Of a DNA stretch of 64,000 nucleotides, positions 59,153-64,000 are shown piece by piece. Position 1 is the first letter of the stretch. Each line of letters begins with the position of its first letter. Location: NCBI GenBank assembly GCA_021324755.1, contig JAJPIL010000020.1:1-64000 (forward strand), read 5' to 3'. The DNA comes from Pseudomonadota bacterium. GTDB lineage: Bacteria; Desulfobacterota; Binatia; Binatales; Binataceae. Made by a program: the position numbers and the translations under genes. The notes under the pieces are model-generated. The model was not told the DNA's origin, did no database searches, and worked only from the letters and a program-made list of their open reading frames with translations.

Positions 59153-59530
59153 TCAGCCCACTGGCGGGTATAGCTCGTGCACGAGGTCGTGAATTTCTTC
59201 CAACCCGCGATAAAATTGCTCGACTTCATCATGTATTCGGCGAAGCGATTGTTCAGCCGATTTGACCACCAGCACAAGAGCGCGCAAATACTCGCGTTTG
59301 GCATCTCCTTTGGGCAAGGCAGCCTGTCGTTGTTCGAGTTCGACGATCGCATCTTCGAAGCGTACCTTGATTTCAGCGAAATTGCGGGCCCGGGCCAGAT
59401 TAGCGATAACGGGCTCGGTCTCCAGCGCCTTTCCCAACTCTGCCAGTTCATGCTGACGCTCGCCCTCGCGGTCTCCACCGAGCACGTTCATCAGCGCAAG
59501 CCGCAACGCCGCAATCTCGTGACAAGCCAT
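59153..59530 (-). CDS. Small helical protein of unknown function
   Basis: 125 residues; a GGAGGA lies upstream of the ATG with a rather long spacing. All-helical and charged: ALRLALMNVLGG, then AELGKALETEPVIANLARAR, IKVRFEDAIVELEQRQ and SLRRIHDEVEQFYRGLEE. No Cys/His pattern and no membrane segment. Its own family is not recognised. The gene sits alone between tRNA-Gly and the cobalamin operon. Confidence 0.6.
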   Translation of the reverse strand: MACHEIAALRLALMNVLGGDREGERQHELAELGKALETEPVIANLARARNFAEIKVRFEDAIVELEQRQAALPKGDAKREYLRALVLVVKSAEQSLRRIHDEVEQFYRGLEEIHDLVHELYPPVG

Positions 59531-59700: not shown

Positions 59701-60894
59701 TTAAGGGGTCATTACTTGATCGATTAGACGGGCTACCGGCCGGTTACCGCAAAGATGCTGGTCGATAATTTCATCCAGGTCGCTCAATTTAACGCCGCGA
59801 TACCACACGCCATCTGGGTATACGACGAGCAGCGGTCCGTCTCCGCATCGCCTAAGACAACTCGTCTTAGTGGTTTGAATCTCGCGATCAAGGCCACGGT
59901 CTTTAAGCTTTTGGCGCAACGCCGCCATCAACGCAGCGCTTCCTTGAACCACGCACTCGGTGTTGACGCACACTAGAATATGCTTTCGCACTGGGGCGTG
60001 CGCGTGCGCATGGGGAGCTGCGGCGACCAAGCCAGCGTGCCGAAGCGAGCGCGCAAGCGCGATCTCGCCGCCAACGTCATCCTCGAATCCGGCAAGCTTA
60101 ACTTTGTATTTGCAGACATCGCACGACATTCGGGTAAGCCCTTCGAGCGCTTCGCTGACGCGCAAAAAAACGACATCCAAAAGGCGGGAATCGTCTCCAA
60201 GCGTTGGCGCGGCGATCACTTCTATCCAAGGAAACTCCTGGCGAAAGCTCGAGACGGTTGCTTCGATACGCTGGACCAGCACCCCCGCAAAAAACAGGTA
60301 CGGAAGCACCACGATGCGCCTCAGACGCGCGCGGGCAAGGTTGCGCAGCGCTTCTTCCAGGGTCGGCCCCACTACACCGCAAAAAGCGCATTCCACCGCG
60401 CCAAAGCCTCGTCCTTCCCACAAGAGACGGGCGAGCTTGTAGACATCGCTGTTGGCGTCGGGATCGCTCGACCCACGTCCGAGCAGCACGACGCCGATTT
60501 CACGGTTTTTCCTGGGATTTCCATTGGACTGAGCCTGCTCTAGCCGGTCCGCCAAAATTTCGACCATCACCGGATGAATCCCCAAGGGAGCCGCCTCGAC
60601 AAAGCGCACGCCCGGATAGCGTTTGCGCGCCATCTCGATATACAGCGGGATGTCCGATTTGACGTGACCAGCGGCGAGCAACAACCAGGGAGCCACCACC
60701 ACTTGCCTTATACCGGAAGATGCCACTTGCTCGAGAGCCTGCGGCACGCTCGGCTCAGCGAGCTCGATAAAGGCTGGCTCAACCGGGCCGTGCCAGCGGC
60801 TACGAGCCTTTTCCACCACGCGCAAAAACTGGCGGTTGGCTTCGGCAAGGCGACTGCCGTGGCCGACTAAAACGATTGCCACGGTCTCATTCAT
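59701..60894 (-). CDS. cbiX: CbiX-type cobaltochelatase/sirohydrochlorin chelatase fused to [2Fe-2S] ferredoxin
   Basis: 397 residues. Two chelatase-type repeats: the first begins IVLVGHGSRLAEANRQF with His at the metal site and ends RQVVVAPWLLLAAGHVKSDI; the second begins VVLLGRGSSDPDANSD and ends RRIVVLPYLFFAGVLVQRI. A short histidine-rich linker (AAAPHAHAHAPVRKH) leads to a ~90-residue thioredoxin-fold [2Fe-2S] ferredoxin: CVNTECVVQGS, later TSCLRRCGDGPLLVVYPDG. CbiX inserts cobalt into sirohydrochlorin. The start overlaps the 126-aa gene by 4 bases (ATGA), showing translational coupling. Last gene of the operon. Confidence 0.9.
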   Translation of the reverse strand: MNETVAIVLVGHGSRLAEANRQFLRVVEKARSRWHGPVEPAFIELAEPSVPQALEQVASSGIRQVVVAPWLLLAAGHVKSDIPLYIEMARKRYPGVRFVEAAPLGIHPVMVEILADRLEQAQSNGNPRKNREIGVVLLGRGSSDPDANSDVYKLARLLWEGRGFGAVECAFCGVVGPTLEEALRNLARARLRRIVVLPYLFFAGVLVQRIEATVSSFRQEFPWIEVIAAPTLGDDSRLLDVVFLRVSEALEGLTRMSCDVCKYKVKLAGFEDDVGGEIALARSLRHAGLVAAAPHAHAHAPVRKHILVCVNTECVVQGSAALMAALRQKLKDRGLDREIQTTKTSCLRRCGDGPLLVVYPDGVWYRGVKLSDLDEIIDQHLCGNRPVARLIDQVMTP

Positions 60895-61271
60895 CGCGCG
60901 GAAAGCAGAGCTACACCCTCTGCCTGAGCGTACTTTTCGGCCAGTGCGTCGAAAGCTCTGCGCCGGGCAGAATCGAAATCGTCTTTGGCCTTGTTAGTGC
61001 GCGGCAGGTAGACGGTCGCCACTGGAGCGCTGTTTTGATCGAGAAAGCGCACCGAACAGTTACCTTGCTCCGCGCTTGCAATTTCGGCGCGCTTGAGCGA
61101 GGCGCGCCGGATGTGGGCATGACTCGCAGTCCCTGCCATCTCCACAGTGACGTATTCGTCACCATCGCGAAATTGCGGTTTGCCACACAGCTCGGCGATC
61201 GCGCTCTCGTTGCGAATCACCACCCGCACTTCGTCCCATCCGCAAAGCTCCCGCAATAATTCGACGATCAT
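60891..61271 (-). CDS. Cobalamin-operon protein of unknown function (HemS/ChuX-like fold possible)
   Basis: 126 residues from the ATG at 61271, which overlaps the cbiG stop by 4 bases (ATGA); its own stop overlaps the cbiX start in the same way. Longer upstream reading in this frame lies inside cbiG and is not real. The sequence has an RVVIRNESAIAELCGKP start, a central AHIRRASLKRAEIASAEQG and a strand pair CSVRFLDQNSAPVATVYLP, which recalls the heme-binding HemS/ChuX repeat; a helix KDDFDSARRRAFDALAEKYA closes it. The resemblance is weak. Its place between cbiG and cbiX points to tetrapyrrole or cobalt handling. Confidence 0.7.
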   Translation of the reverse strand: MIVELLRELCGWDEVRVVIRNESAIAELCGKPQFRDGDEYVTVEMAGTASHAHIRRASLKRAEIASAEQGNCSVRFLDQNSAPVATVYLPRTNKAKDDFDSARRRAFDALAEKYAQAEGVALLSAR

Positions 61272-62347
61272 ATGACGCCAACCTCCGGAACAAGGGCCAC
61301 GGCGAGCGTTACGCGGCCACATTTGACTTTCGGCACAAGGAGACTTTCGGTGCCAGCGCTCAGTATCGCGGCCGGCTCGGCTACTCCGAGCACGCCGGTG
61401 TACTTGAGCACGGTCTGCGAGGGATTGGGAATCAGATGCTCCACGCGGCCGATCTCGTGGCGCTCGAAAGCCTCGAGCCTGAGCTTTCTTCGGCGCGCGA
61501 ACTCCAGCAGTCCCGGCTCGTCTTTCTTGAGCACGTAGGTCGCAAGGTTGCGAATGCTCAGTTGCGACAGCCCGCGCTCGCTGAAGACTTGAGCCAACGC
61601 CTGTTCGATTTCTTCCAGGGAAGTTCCGCGATCGCATCCGATCCCGACGACAAGCGACTTGGGCCGAATCAAAATCACCGGCATCGCGCCAAAACAATCT
61701 GCGGGAAACGCGCGATGGGAGACCACGACGCCGGCCTTGAAGCGGCCGTCGAGCTCTTCGAGCGACGAAACCTGAAAAACCTTCTTGGCGGCAAAGCGCG
61801 CAAGGTCTGGCAAGCGCACGTTAGGTTCGGCAAAGACGCCGACCGGTTCGCCATCCACGAGCATGCCGCTTACCGTCTTGAGCGCCTCCCAGTTCTCGAT
61901 CTCGGCGCCCAGCTCTTTGGCCAGCATGTCGGGCGCAAGCGTTTCGTTGACGTCGGTTCCAGTAGTCACCACCGGCACCGCTCCAAGAATTTGCGCCAGC
62001 CGATTCGCAAGCTCATTCGCTCCACCCAGATGCCCGGAGCAGAGGCTTATCGCGAAGCGACCGGTGACGTCCACGACCACGATCGCTGGATCGGAGCGCT
62101 TGTCTGCGATCAACGGCGCGATTGTTCTGACGACGATGCCCGTGGCCATTACAAAGATAAAGCCGTCGTATTGGGTGAAAAGCTCGGCCACGAGGCTCGC
62201 AAGCCGGCCGTCGAAACGCCGCCAATGCGCGGGCGCGACCGCGTCGTACTTGTGCGAGACAAAGACATCGCACTGCTCGAGCGCTGATTCGACGCGCTTA
62301 CAGATGTCGACGCCTTGACGAGTTAGAGTTATTGCCGCAAGCTTCAT
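61268..62347 (-). CDS. cbiG: Cobalt-precorrin-5A hydrolase CbiG
   Basis: 359 residues. N-terminal half: FIFVMATGIVVRTIAPLIAD, SDPAIVVVDVTGRFAISLCS and GHLGGANELANRLA, the strongly conserved CbiG core. C-terminal half: LVVGIGCDRGTSLEEIEQAL and GVLGVAEPAAIL. It opens the lactone ring of cobalt-precorrin-5A, releasing acetaldehyde, in the oxygen-independent cobalamin pathway. Overlaps cobJ at its start and the 126-aa gene at its stop by 4 bases each. In the same minus-strand operon as cobM and cobJ. Confidence 0.95.
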   Translation of the reverse strand: MKLAAITLTRQGVDICKRVESALEQCDVFVSHKYDAVAPAHWRRFDGRLASLVAELFTQYDGFIFVMATGIVVRTIAPLIADKRSDPAIVVVDVTGRFAISLCSGHLGGANELANRLAQILGAVPVVTTGTDVNETLAPDMLAKELGAEIENWEALKTVSGMLVDGEPVGVFAEPNVRLPDLARFAAKKVFQVSSLEELDGRFKAGVVVSHRAFPADCFGAMPVILIRPKSLVVGIGCDRGTSLEEIEQALAQVFSERGLSQLSIRNLATYVLKKDEPGLLEFARRRKLRLEAFERHEIGRVEHLIPNPSQTVLKYTGVLGVAEPAAILSAGTESLLVPKVKCGRVTLAVALVPEVGVI

Positions 62348-63192
62348 GTCTTTTCGCTACCCGCTTCGACCGCAAGGCGCAGTGAAAGGCCTGGCCTTTG
62401 ACCCTCGAGCACTTCGTGGGTCACAAGGTCGTACTTGTTTTCGTACCCTCGCGGGGTAACGATAAGCCCCTCGAAGTTGTAGGTGCTCGAATTCCCGATT
62501 ATGACCGTGGTCAGCATGCCGATTTCGTGCTCCGTAAGATGAGCCAGGTCGGTGACGACCACGTTTTGGAGCTTTCGGTACGCGCTTTTGACGATGCCCG
62601 TGGGCGTGGACGGGGCGCGGTACTTGAGGATTATCTCCTGCGTCCTCTTGAGCTGCCAGTCTCGACGCTTCGACTGAGGATTGTAGAGCGCGATTACGAA
62701 ATCCCCCGCAGCCGCGGCCTCGACCCGTCGCTCGATCACGGGCCACGGCGTCAGAAGGTCCGAAAGGCTAATCGCGGCGAAGTCATGGGTCAAAGGGGCA
62801 CCCAGAAGCGAAGCGCAAGCCGAAAGCGCGGTGATTCCCGGGATTACTTCGACGTCCGGGTTGTCGCCCGGTTTCCATCCCATTTCGCGCAAGCACTCGA
62901 AAGTCGGCCCCGCCATCCCGTAAATTCCGATGTCGCCGCTCGACACAAGCGCCACGGTCTTTCCCGAGCGTGCGATCTCGATAGCTTCGCTCGCTCGGTC
63001 GAGTTCTTCGGTCATCCCCTTGCGAATGACCTCTTTGCCTTCGAGCAAGTGGGCGATGAGCTTGATGTAAGTCGAATAACCGATCACCACATCGCTTTGC
63101 TTGATAGCCGCAAGAGCGCGTGGCGTAATGTGCTGATCATCGCCCGGGCCGAACCCCACAAGAAAGAGTCGTCCTCGCAAACCTTCGCTCAT
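62344..63192 (-). CDS. cobJ: Precorrin-3B/cobalt-factor III C17-methyltransferase
   Basis: 282 residues. Class III methyltransferase fold: LFLVGFGPGDDQHITPRAL, VALVSSGDIGIYGMAGPTFE, IPGITALSACASLLGAPLTH, DFVIALYNPQSKRR and TTVIIGNSSTYNFEGLIVTPR. It adds the C17 methyl and contracts the corrin ring. Because cbiG and cbiX are present, the CbiH (cobalt-first) version of the reaction is more likely than CobJ proper. It starts directly after the cobM stop and overlaps cbiG by 4 bases. Confidence 0.95.
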   Translation of the reverse strand: MSEGLRGRLFLVGFGPGDDQHITPRALAAIKQSDVVIGYSTYIKLIAHLLEGKEVIRKGMTEELDRASEAIEIARSGKTVALVSSGDIGIYGMAGPTFECLREMGWKPGDNPDVEVIPGITALSACASLLGAPLTHDFAAISLSDLLTPWPVIERRVEAAAAGDFVIALYNPQSKRRDWQLKRTQEIILKYRAPSTPTGIVKSAYRKLQNVVVTDLAHLTEHEIGMLTTVIIGNSSTYNFEGLIVTPRGYENKYDLVTHEVLEGQRPGLSLRLAVEAGSEKT

Positions 63193-64000
63193 CTATTCCA
63201 CCTCGTCAGTTTTTTGCCCGTCGGCACACTGGTCGCAAGCCGCAGGCCCATGCGCGTTTCGTCTGCGAAAACTATGGCTAAAGCTCGGGTCATAAAGGCG
63301 CGACCTTCGCTCGCCGGCGCGCTCTTTTATCGTCGGGTCGAGCGCGGGCCCCACCAGAATCATGGCTTGGGCGCGAATGCCGGCAAGCTTGCTTTTTGCG
63401 GCGATATCCTCGATCGTGCCTCGCACGATCTTCTGATTGGGTTGGCTTGCATAGGCAACCACGGCGACCGGAGTGTCTGGAGGATATCCCGCGCTGAGTT
63501 CTTCGACCACCTGCGCGATCAGCGCGCCGCTAAGAAAGATCGCCATCGTGGCGCGATGGCCGGCGAGGTCGCGCAACCGTTGTCCGTCGGGCATCGGTGT
63601 ACGCCCCTCGGCACGCGTGAAAATGACCGTCTGGGCGATCTCGGGCACGGTCAGTTCATTCCCCAACGCGGCAGCGGCGGCGAAAGCCGAGCATACGCCG
63701 GGAACGATCTCGTAGGCGACTCCCGCACGCTCGAGTGCGACCATCTGCTCGTGGATCGCGCCGAATATGGACGGGTCGCCCGAGTGAACGCGCGCAACGA
63801 GCTTGCCCGCGCGCGCCCGCTCCACCATAAGGTCGACCAACTGTTCCAGATGGAGGCGGGCGCTGTCGTGAAGTTCGGCATCGCTGCGCGCCGCGCGGAA
63901 AAGTCCCTGGTCCAGCAGCGAGCCGGTGTAAATAATGACGTCGGCCTGGGAGATAATGCGCTGCGCCTTAAGCGTGAGCAACTCTGGGTCGCCCGGCCCG
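63193..64000 (-). CDS. cobM: Precorrin-4/cobalt-precorrin-4 C11-methyltransferase (5' end outside window)
   Basis: The frame runs out of the window; the visible protein begins GPGDPELLTLKAQRIISQAD, the conserved N-terminal block of the class III methylases. Other motifs: VIYTGSLLDQG-type (IIYTGSLLDQGLF), LVARVHSGDPSIFGAIHEQM, VPGVCSAFAAAAALGNELT, TRAEGRTPMPD and MAIFLSGALIAQVV. The C-terminal tail (after ~ 225 residues) is longer than usual and rich in Arg/Ser. First visible gene of the operon; it abuts cobJ. Any cobalamin riboswitch would lie beyond the window. Confidence 0.95.
   Translation of the reverse strand, partial: GPGDPELLTLKAQRIISQADVIIYTGSLLDQGLFRAARSDAELHDSARLHLEQLVDLMVERARAGKLVARVHSGDPSIFGAIHEQMVALERAGVAYEIVPGVCSAFAAAAALGNELTVPEIAQTVIFTRAEGRTPMPDGQRLRDLAGHRATMAIFLSGALIAQVVEELSAGYPPDTPVAVVAYASQPNQKIVRGTIEDIAAKSKLAGIRAQAMILVGPALDPTIKERAGERRSRLYDPSFSHSFRRRNAHGPAACDQCADGQKTDEVE

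What the first reader, a model, noticed from the sequence alone, without database searches (positions are those of the whole stretch)
60891..61271. Unknown 126-aa protein locked inside the cobalamin operon by ATGA overlaps on both sides
It overlaps cbiG upstream and cbiX downstream by 4 bases each, so it is translationally coupled to both. The strand pair CSVRFLDQNSAPVATVYLP and an RNE-type start recall the heme-binding HemS/ChuX repeat. It could carry a cobalt tetrapyrrole intermediate or supply metal to CbiX.
Basis: partly seen in the sequence, partly recalled or inferred. Interest (0 to 1): 0.5.

Follow-up and report, generated by a model that had tools for sequence, protein, structure and literature searches.

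The report
Heme-carrier-like protein beside cobalt chelatase
A small protein with the shape of bacterial heme carriers is encoded next to the enzyme that puts cobalt into the vitamin B12 ring in a few uncultured bacteria, which suggests that a heme-carrier fold was reused to handle a B12 intermediate; this has not been tested at the bench.

Summary
Window 60891..61271, minus strand, encodes a 126-aa protein that overlaps cbiG and cbiX by ATGA on each side. It is a real gene: 7 of 145 sampled class genomes have a strong match, and in 7 of 7 it lies directly upstream of a double-domain CbiX. The fold guess is right. It passes Pfam ChuX_HutX (34 v. 25 bits), and a confident model (pLDDT 93) matches ChuX at Z 12.8, 111 residues, 2.1-2.3 Å. 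It is not HutX proper: the HutX equivalog score is 23.5 v. 110, it lacks the N-terminal part, and it sits in a B12 operon. Its only two histidines form an H-x-H invariant in 16 of 16 aligned relatives; the second aligns with the GHIK histidine of 2hqv, a ChuX-type structure. In one genome the ChuX-like-CbiX-DUF3209 block stands apart from the other cbi genes and its CbiX has a different ancestry from its CbiH, so the partner is CbiX rather than CbiG. Best reading: a tetrapyrrole carrier for CbiX (inferred, 0.45). Ligand untested. Distribution narrow. New variant of a known kind.

The parts
60891..61271 (-). ChuX/HutX-fold protein, 126 aa (the finding)
   Evidence: (PF06228 34 bits v. cut-off 25)
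61113..61121 (-). codons of the H51-A-H53 motif, the only two histidines of the protein; H51 and H53 invariant in 16 of 16 aligned relatives
   Evidence: H53 aligns with a histidine of 3na2, 3fm2 and 2hqv
61191..61193 (-). codon of E27, invariant in 16 of 16; also a Glu in 3na2, 3fm2 and 2hqv, so probably a fold residue
61268..61271 (-). ATGA overlap, CbiG stop / ChuX-like start
60891..60894 (-). ATGA overlap, ChuX-like stop / CbiX start
59701..60894 (-). CbiX, two chelatase domains, MXCXXC (residues 256-261), HAHAH stretch, C-terminal thioredoxin-like 2Fe-2S domain; the proposed partner
59153..59530 (-). DUF3209 protein, 125 aa, last cob-linked gene downstream
   Evidence: 138.8 bits v. 25; Foldseek top 2ehw, TTHB059 of Thermus thermophilus HB8
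61268..62347 (-). CbiG
62344..63192 (-). CbiH/CobJ
   Evidence: TIGR01466 334.6 v. 246.35
63193..64000 (-). CbiF/CobM; its predicted start lies just outside the window (L008:9494-10333), with CbiL, CbiT, a CbiC-CbiE-type fusion and CbiD further upstream on the contig
   Evidence: TIGR01465 299.1 v. 259.65; gene bounds by my own script; families: CbiD and CbiC by Pfam, CbiL 244.8 v. 163.25 and CbiT 117.8 v. 78.3; the CbiE half is only shown as TP_methylase

Best explanation
The gene encodes a stand-alone ChuX/HutX-fold protein that works as an accessory of the cobalt chelatase CbiX. The most likely job is that of a small tetrapyrrole carrier: it holds sirohydrochlorin (or the cobalt-sirohydrochlorin product) in the cleft that holds heme in ChuX/HutX and passes it to or from CbiX, much as HutX passes heme to HutZ or HutW. 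Shown: gene, overlaps, homology, fold, invariant H-x-H, fixed adjacency to CbiX, module behaviour. Inferred: that the ligand is a tetrapyrrole, which one, the direction of transfer, and physical contact with CbiX.
For: Fold and family: PF06228 over its cut-off (6 of 7 cob-linked proteins over it, G046 below); model pLDDT 93.1; Z 12.8 to ChuX, 11.1 to HutX, 9.9 to PhuS, 8.8 to HemS, then 6.1 for the first unrelated fold. ChuX and HutX bind Fe(III)-heme 1:1 (passage of PMC10404700) and HutX transports heme to HutZ and HutW (passage of PMC12670364). Adjacency: 7 of 7 strong matches directly upstream of a double CbiX; no strong match in the 104 of 145 class genomes without a CbiX match. Module: in G046 ChuX-like-CbiX-DUF3209 sits behind a BluB-like gene, apart from a second cbi cluster; its CbiX groups with G496 (94/93) outside the B clade (100/100), its DUF3209 also falls outside the B clade (100/100), its CbiH groups with B (91/100; a fork of only two B rows, one of 67 aa, and Leptospira). 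G008 and G027 lack both the 2Fe-2S domain and DUF3209, and G015 shows only an 18-residue remnant of DUF3209, yet these three keep the ChuX-like gene beside CbiX: the tie is to the chelatase itself. Residues: H51, H53 and E27 invariant in 16 of 16; R35, R75 and R103 invariant in the 7 cob-linked proteins but found in only 2, 1 and 1 of 9 others, which would suit a ligand with more carboxylates than heme (inference). Each of the seven genomes has one PF06228 match only, so no second copy for heme was found.
Against: No ligand, contact or phenotype data. The class II chelatase CbiK works at in-vivo cobalt availability without a helper (passage of PMC7689651). The gene is dispensable: 11 genomes with a related double CbiX lack it, Thermus has CbiG and CbiX directly abutting, haloarchaea and Leptospira have other genes there. 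It is narrow: 7 of 145 sampled in the class; in 395 genomes sampled over the phylum only the window's own at E 1e-6 with profile A2, and one further, weak one (2.9e-4) with the single sequence. Single-sequence phmmer finds no ChuX in the PDB, and profile A2 finds only 2hqv with support (3.6e-4). The first repeat of HemS has no histidine at the H53 place, so that residue is not needed for heme binding throughout the superfamily. ChuX's other heme-side histidine (H65, recalled) would be N21 here.
Confidence: 0.45

Rival explanations
1. Cobalt metallochaperone: H51 and H53, on one strand and facing the same side, bind Co(II), perhaps with E27, and load CbiX; the tetrapyrrole cleft is a relic.
For: H51 and H53 are the only histidines of the protein and invariant in 16 of 16; fixed adjacency to a chelatase. 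[quoted passage not shown]
Against: H53 aligns with a histidine, and E27 with a Glu, of ChuX-type 2hqv, so only H51 is special; the H-x-H also occurs in the nine relatives not linked to CbiX as far as tested and in 3na2; CbiX already carries an HAHAH stretch and an MXCXXC; CbiK needs no helper. Whether the three side chains meet could not be measured: no coordinates were available.
Confidence: 0.15
2. Heme or siroheme sensor or scavenger: it binds the iron product, either to clear mis-metalated siroheme from CbiX or to tune B12 synthesis to heme/siroheme status.
For: Same fold as heme binders; PhuS of this superfamily both transfers heme and, as apo-protein, binds DNA (passage of PMC12670364).
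Against: No heme-degradation or heme-uptake gene recognised next to it in the window, and it sits among cbi genes in the other genomes read (most non-cbi genes there were not put through family searches); HutX equivalog cut-off not met.
Confidence: 0.15
3. Stand-in for a redox step: part of a replacement for the missing cobalt-precorrin-6A reductase CbiJ, or for the flavoprotein reductase of the other operon type.
For: CbiJ (PF02571) over cut-off in 0 of 41 CbiX genomes (0 of 18, with two weak matches below cut-off; 0 of 23); the FAD-binding reductase beside DUF3209 is found in 11 of 11 type B genomes (E 2.1e-74 or better) and in 0 of 7 type A genomes at that level, best 5.6e-13: complementary with the ChuX-like gene.
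Against: The two types are two operon lineages, so the complementarity is close to one event (G046 apart); the Thermus operon stretch shows neither gene nor an annotated CbiJ; CbiJ is missing in all 41, with or without the ChuX-like gene; the gene persists where the 2Fe-2S domain and DUF3209 are gone.
Confidence: 0.07
4. Passenger: an unlinked member of the superfamily was captured in the operon and has no B12-specific role.
For: Related H-x-H proteins occur without cob genes; narrow distribution.
Against: Kept next to CbiX across three families of the class with amino-acid identity down to 33% and under purifying selection; kept when neighbours were lost.
Confidence: 0.08

Closest known systems
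ChuX / HutX cytosolic heme carriers (PF06228; PDB 2ovi, 6u9j, 5exv)
   Different: About 15-16% identity; no N-terminal ~45 residues; an extra His two places before the aligned one; HutX equivalog score far below cut-off; lies beside cbiX, not heme genes
3na2, protein of unknown function from Leptospirillum rubarum (closest solved structure)
   Same: Top in Foldseek (1.6e-7), Z 15.0, and top with profile A3 (2.4e-12); shares H-x-H and the V-A-E-L stretch
   Different: 18-19% identity; function unknown; its gene neighbourhood was not looked at; the Pfam model LFE_1968-like (PF22684) did not report the window protein at E 1
HemS / PhuS / ChuS two-domain heme proteins (PF05171)
   Same: One repeat matches (Z 8.7-9.9); RN..A..E stretch
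   Different: Score 14.8 v. cut-off 24; single domain; no histidine at the H53 place in the aligned HemS repeat; different context
CobW, cobalt metallochaperone of the aerobic B12 pathway
   Same: Works like it only if the cobalt-donor rival is right: helper gene near a cobaltochelatase gene (passage of PMC7689651)
   Different: G3E GTPase, unrelated fold; serves CobNST, not CbiX (same passage)

Membership tests
ChuX_HutX (PF06228) | Pfam gathering score 25 bits | tested here: met
   34 bits; 6 of 7 cob-linked proteins over it, G046 19.5-20 bits, below
ChuX_HutX (PF06228) | ChuX/HutX fold | tested here: met
ChuX_HutX (PF06228) | full length including the N-terminal part of the profile | tested here: not met
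   profile positions 29-132 of 134 matched; ChuX aligned only from residue 46
HutX heme carrier, equivalog (TIGR04108) | curated cut-off 110 bits | tested here: not met
   23.5 bits; of four cob-linked relatives tested, 20.1 and 22.7 bits and two without a match
HutX heme carrier, equivalog (TIGR04108) | located with heme-degradation genes such as hutW/hutZ | tested here: not met
   cobalamin genes on both sides
HutX heme carrier, equivalog (TIGR04108) | 1:1 heme binding | not testable with these tools
   needs purified protein
HemS (PF05171) | Pfam gathering score 24 bits | tested here: not met
   14.8 bits
LFE_1968-like (PF22684) | Pfam gathering score 27 bits | tested here: inconclusive
   not reported for the window protein at E 1, but the nearest structure by fold is 3na2 of Leptospirillum; that 3na2 belongs to PF22684 is my inference from the names
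Tetrapyrrole carrier for CbiX (proposed) | binds sirohydrochlorin or Co-sirohydrochlorin and contacts CbiX | not testable with these tools
   only gene linkage and fold are shown

The most novel reading that the evidence does not exclude
A dedicated intermediate-carrier protein of the cobalt-early B12 pathway: a heme-carrier fold recruited to hold sirohydrochlorin or cobalt-sirohydrochlorin and hand it to or from CbiX, so that a reactive free intermediate is channelled at the branch point between siroheme and B12.
Probability: 0.4. Interest if true: 0.65.

Novelty: new variant of a known kind. Interest (0 to 1): 0.48.

Why it matters
How unstable tetrapyrrole intermediates are passed between B12 enzymes, and how sirohydrochlorin is committed to cobalt rather than iron, are practical questions for B12 biology and production. 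A small, well-folded protein tied to the chelatase makes one of them directly testable with two purified proteins. The finding also suggests how a fold known from heme scavenging can be reused in biosynthesis.

Tried and rejected
Rejected: that the ORF is a chance or antisense ORF (homologs, purifying selection). That it replaces CbiJ (see rivals). That it is tied specifically to CbiG (G046 has a BluB-like nitroreductase gene there: Pfam Nitroreductase 62.1 v. 23.5; BluB equivalog 115.8 v. 150, below its cut-off). That the 225-aa protein before CbiX in Halorussus is a distant ChuX-like protein: profile comparison 1.6% probability, no Pfam family over cut-off.

Led nowhere: phmmer with the single sequence; profile A2 against the PDB found only 2hqv with support; viral contigs, 76 pattern matches and no relative; plasmids with the protein, 2 partial matches at E 0.4; Foldseek against viral proteins, nothing at 1e-3; Rfam, three tRNAs only. 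Literature: ChuX + HutX + 'cobalamin biosynthesis' 0 papers, CbiX + HutX 0, CbiX + DUF3209 0, DUF3209 0, all in an open-licence library only; I claim no more than 'not found in these searches'. Of PMC8305020, PMC12670364, PMC10404700, PMC7242693, PMC3403918 and PMC7689651 I saw passages only. The ChuX heme-binding paper was not held, so the role of ChuX H65/H98 is recalled.

Limits: gene bounds in the other genomes come from my own script; G015 and G031 are near copies (98%), so the seven are about six independent cases; class and phylum searches were samples, and few candidates per genome were scored in the phylum runs; trees have long outgroup branches and I read only the A/B placements from them; residue distances in the model could not be measured. 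Of the nine relatives called unlinked, six neighbourhoods were read (G038, G050, G487, G462, G437, G090); the other three (G472, G039, G483) rest on no CbiX match in the genome; G090 was not searched for CbiX.

Full report
What is there. The window's right end holds the 3' part of a cobalt-early B12 operon read on the minus strand. In transcription order the contig gives CbiD, a fusion of CbiC with a CbiE-type methylase, CbiT, CbiL, CbiF, CbiH, CbiG, the finding, CbiX, DUF3209. The finding is a 126-aa ORF at 61271..60891 that shares ATGA with CbiG at its start and with CbiX at its end. CbiX has two chelatase domains, an MXCXXC motif, an HAHAH stretch and a thioredoxin-like 2Fe-2S domain; an MXCXXC holding a 4Fe-4S centre is described for CbiXL (title of a reference in PMC7689651).

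Is it a gene. A profile of six relatives (A2) found 17 of 145 genomes sampled from the class at E 0.01; seven are strong (E 7.7e-40 or better: the window, G008, G015, G027, G031, G046, G496) and ten weak (2.1e-9 or worse). The seven strong matches lie directly upstream of a double CbiX on the same strand, the two profile matches 36 to 110 bases apart; of the ten weak ones only G037 has a CbiX match at all, on another contig. Pairwise rates show purifying selection where synonymous sites are not saturated.

What family. Pfam ChuX_HutX 34 bits against a cut-off of 25, HemS below its cut-off; HutX equivalog 23.5 against 110. The AlphaFold2 model has mean pLDDT 93.1 and pTM 0.88 from six sequences. 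Foldseek finds chains of 3na2, 2ph0, 3fm2, ChuX (2ovi, 6u9j), HutX (5exv) and 2hqv at E below 0.001, 17 chains in all. VIA-align gives Z 15.0 (3na2), 12.8 (ChuX, 111 residues, 2.1-2.3 Å), 12.4 (3fm2), 12.1 (2hqv), 11.2 (2ph0), 11.1 (HutX), 9.9 (PhuS), 8.8 (HemS), against 6.1 for the first unrelated fold. A profile of 16 relatives (A3) finds the same proteins by sequence, ChuX itself only at E 0.049. Single-sequence search of the PDB finds none of them.

Residues. E27, H51 and H53 are the only residues invariant in all 16 aligned proteins, nine of which are not linked to cob genes as far as tested. In the printed alignments H53 falls on a histidine and E27 on a Glu in 3na2, 3fm2 and 2hqv; H51 falls on His, Glu and Gly respectively. 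In the first repeat of HemS the H53 place is not a histidine. The window protein and the G496 protein have no other histidine. R35, R75 and R103 are invariant in the seven cob-linked proteins and present in 2, 1 and 1 of the nine others; the cob-linked proteins also carry more K+R (14-22 against 9-16). This fits a ligand richer in carboxylates than heme, but it is only suggestive.

Who is the partner. Within the window's family two operon types exist. Type A has the ChuX-like gene. Type B (11 genomes) has CbiX, DUF3209, an FAD-binding reductase, CbiD, CbiC and a CbiE-CbiT-type fusion, as far as each contig reaches (two genomes with one gene more), and no ChuX-like gene. G046 is a hybrid: a BluB-like gene, ChuX-like, CbiX, DUF3209 as one block, then after other genes a second cbi cluster. 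Its CbiX groups with G496 of type A (94/93; B clade 100/100), its DUF3209 lies outside the B clade (100/100), and its CbiH groups with type B (91/100, few rows). So the ChuX-like gene follows CbiX, not CbiG. It also stays beside CbiX where the 2Fe-2S domain and DUF3209 are both gone (G008, G027) and where DUF3209 is reduced to an 18-residue match (G015). Outside the class, Thermus thermophilus HB8 has CbiG, CbiX and DUF3209 in a row with nothing between; Halorussus has a 4Fe-4S ferredoxin and a 225-aa unknown before CbiX; Leptospira has the type B order, its reductase 37% identical. The ChuX-like gene is therefore an added, optional part.

How it most likely works. ChuX and HutX bind heme 1:1 and HutX passes it to its enzyme (passages). 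A protein of this fold that is inherited with a tetrapyrrole chelatase most simply holds the chelatase's substrate or product. Steps shown: gene, fold, conserved residues, co-inheritance. Steps inferred: ligand, direction, contact. The metal-donor reading is weaker because H53 and E27 have counterparts in the ChuX type and because a class II chelatase can work without a helper (passage). The redox reading is weaker because the gene outlives the redox partners.

Novelty. Searches for papers with ChuX and HutX together with cobalamin biosynthesis, or CbiX with HutX, returned none in the open-licence library. The fold and the pathway are known; their combination is the new part. The distribution is narrow: in 395 genomes sampled over the phylum only the window's own at E 1e-6. 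Interest is moderate: clear and testable, but accessory.

Noticed in passing
window 59153..59530 (-): DUF3209 follows the double CbiX in 15 of 41 CbiX genomes of the class and in the Thermus, Halorussus and Leptospira records read. CbiJ is over cut-off in none of the 41, and among 14 control genomes the DUF3209 and CbiJ hits are disjoint. DUF3209 is a candidate for the CbiJ gap noted for haloarchaea (passages of PMC8305020 and PMC3403918); but CbiJ is also absent in the 26 class genomes without DUF3209, so no anti-correlation is shown within the class.
   Followed up: partly
L052:9084-9839 and ten more genomes; L078:10556-11305: An FAD-binding reductase (FAD_binding_6, BenC-like in part) stands beside DUF3209 in 11 of 11 type B operons and in Leptospira, and is absent from the 7 type A genomes at that similarity.
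   Followed up: partly
window 59701..60894 (-); L010, L012, L009: The 2Fe-2S domain of CbiX and DUF3209 are missing together in G008 and G027, and G015 shows only an 18-residue match to DUF3209: they may form one functional pair. The domain is over cut-off in G004, Leptospira and Halorussus CbiX and below it in Thermus (15.1 v. 24.8).
   Followed up: partly
L077:8285-8962: A 225-aa protein before CbiX in Halorussus matches no Pfam family over cut-off and is not ChuX-like.
   Followed up: no
L027, L028, L029, L031, L032, L047, L014, L034, L046: Further small ChuX-like proteins with an H-x-H motif occur in the class and phylum outside cob operons as far as tested; of the three put through Pfam, two pass ChuX_HutX and one passes LFE_1968-like. 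Function unknown.
   Followed up: no
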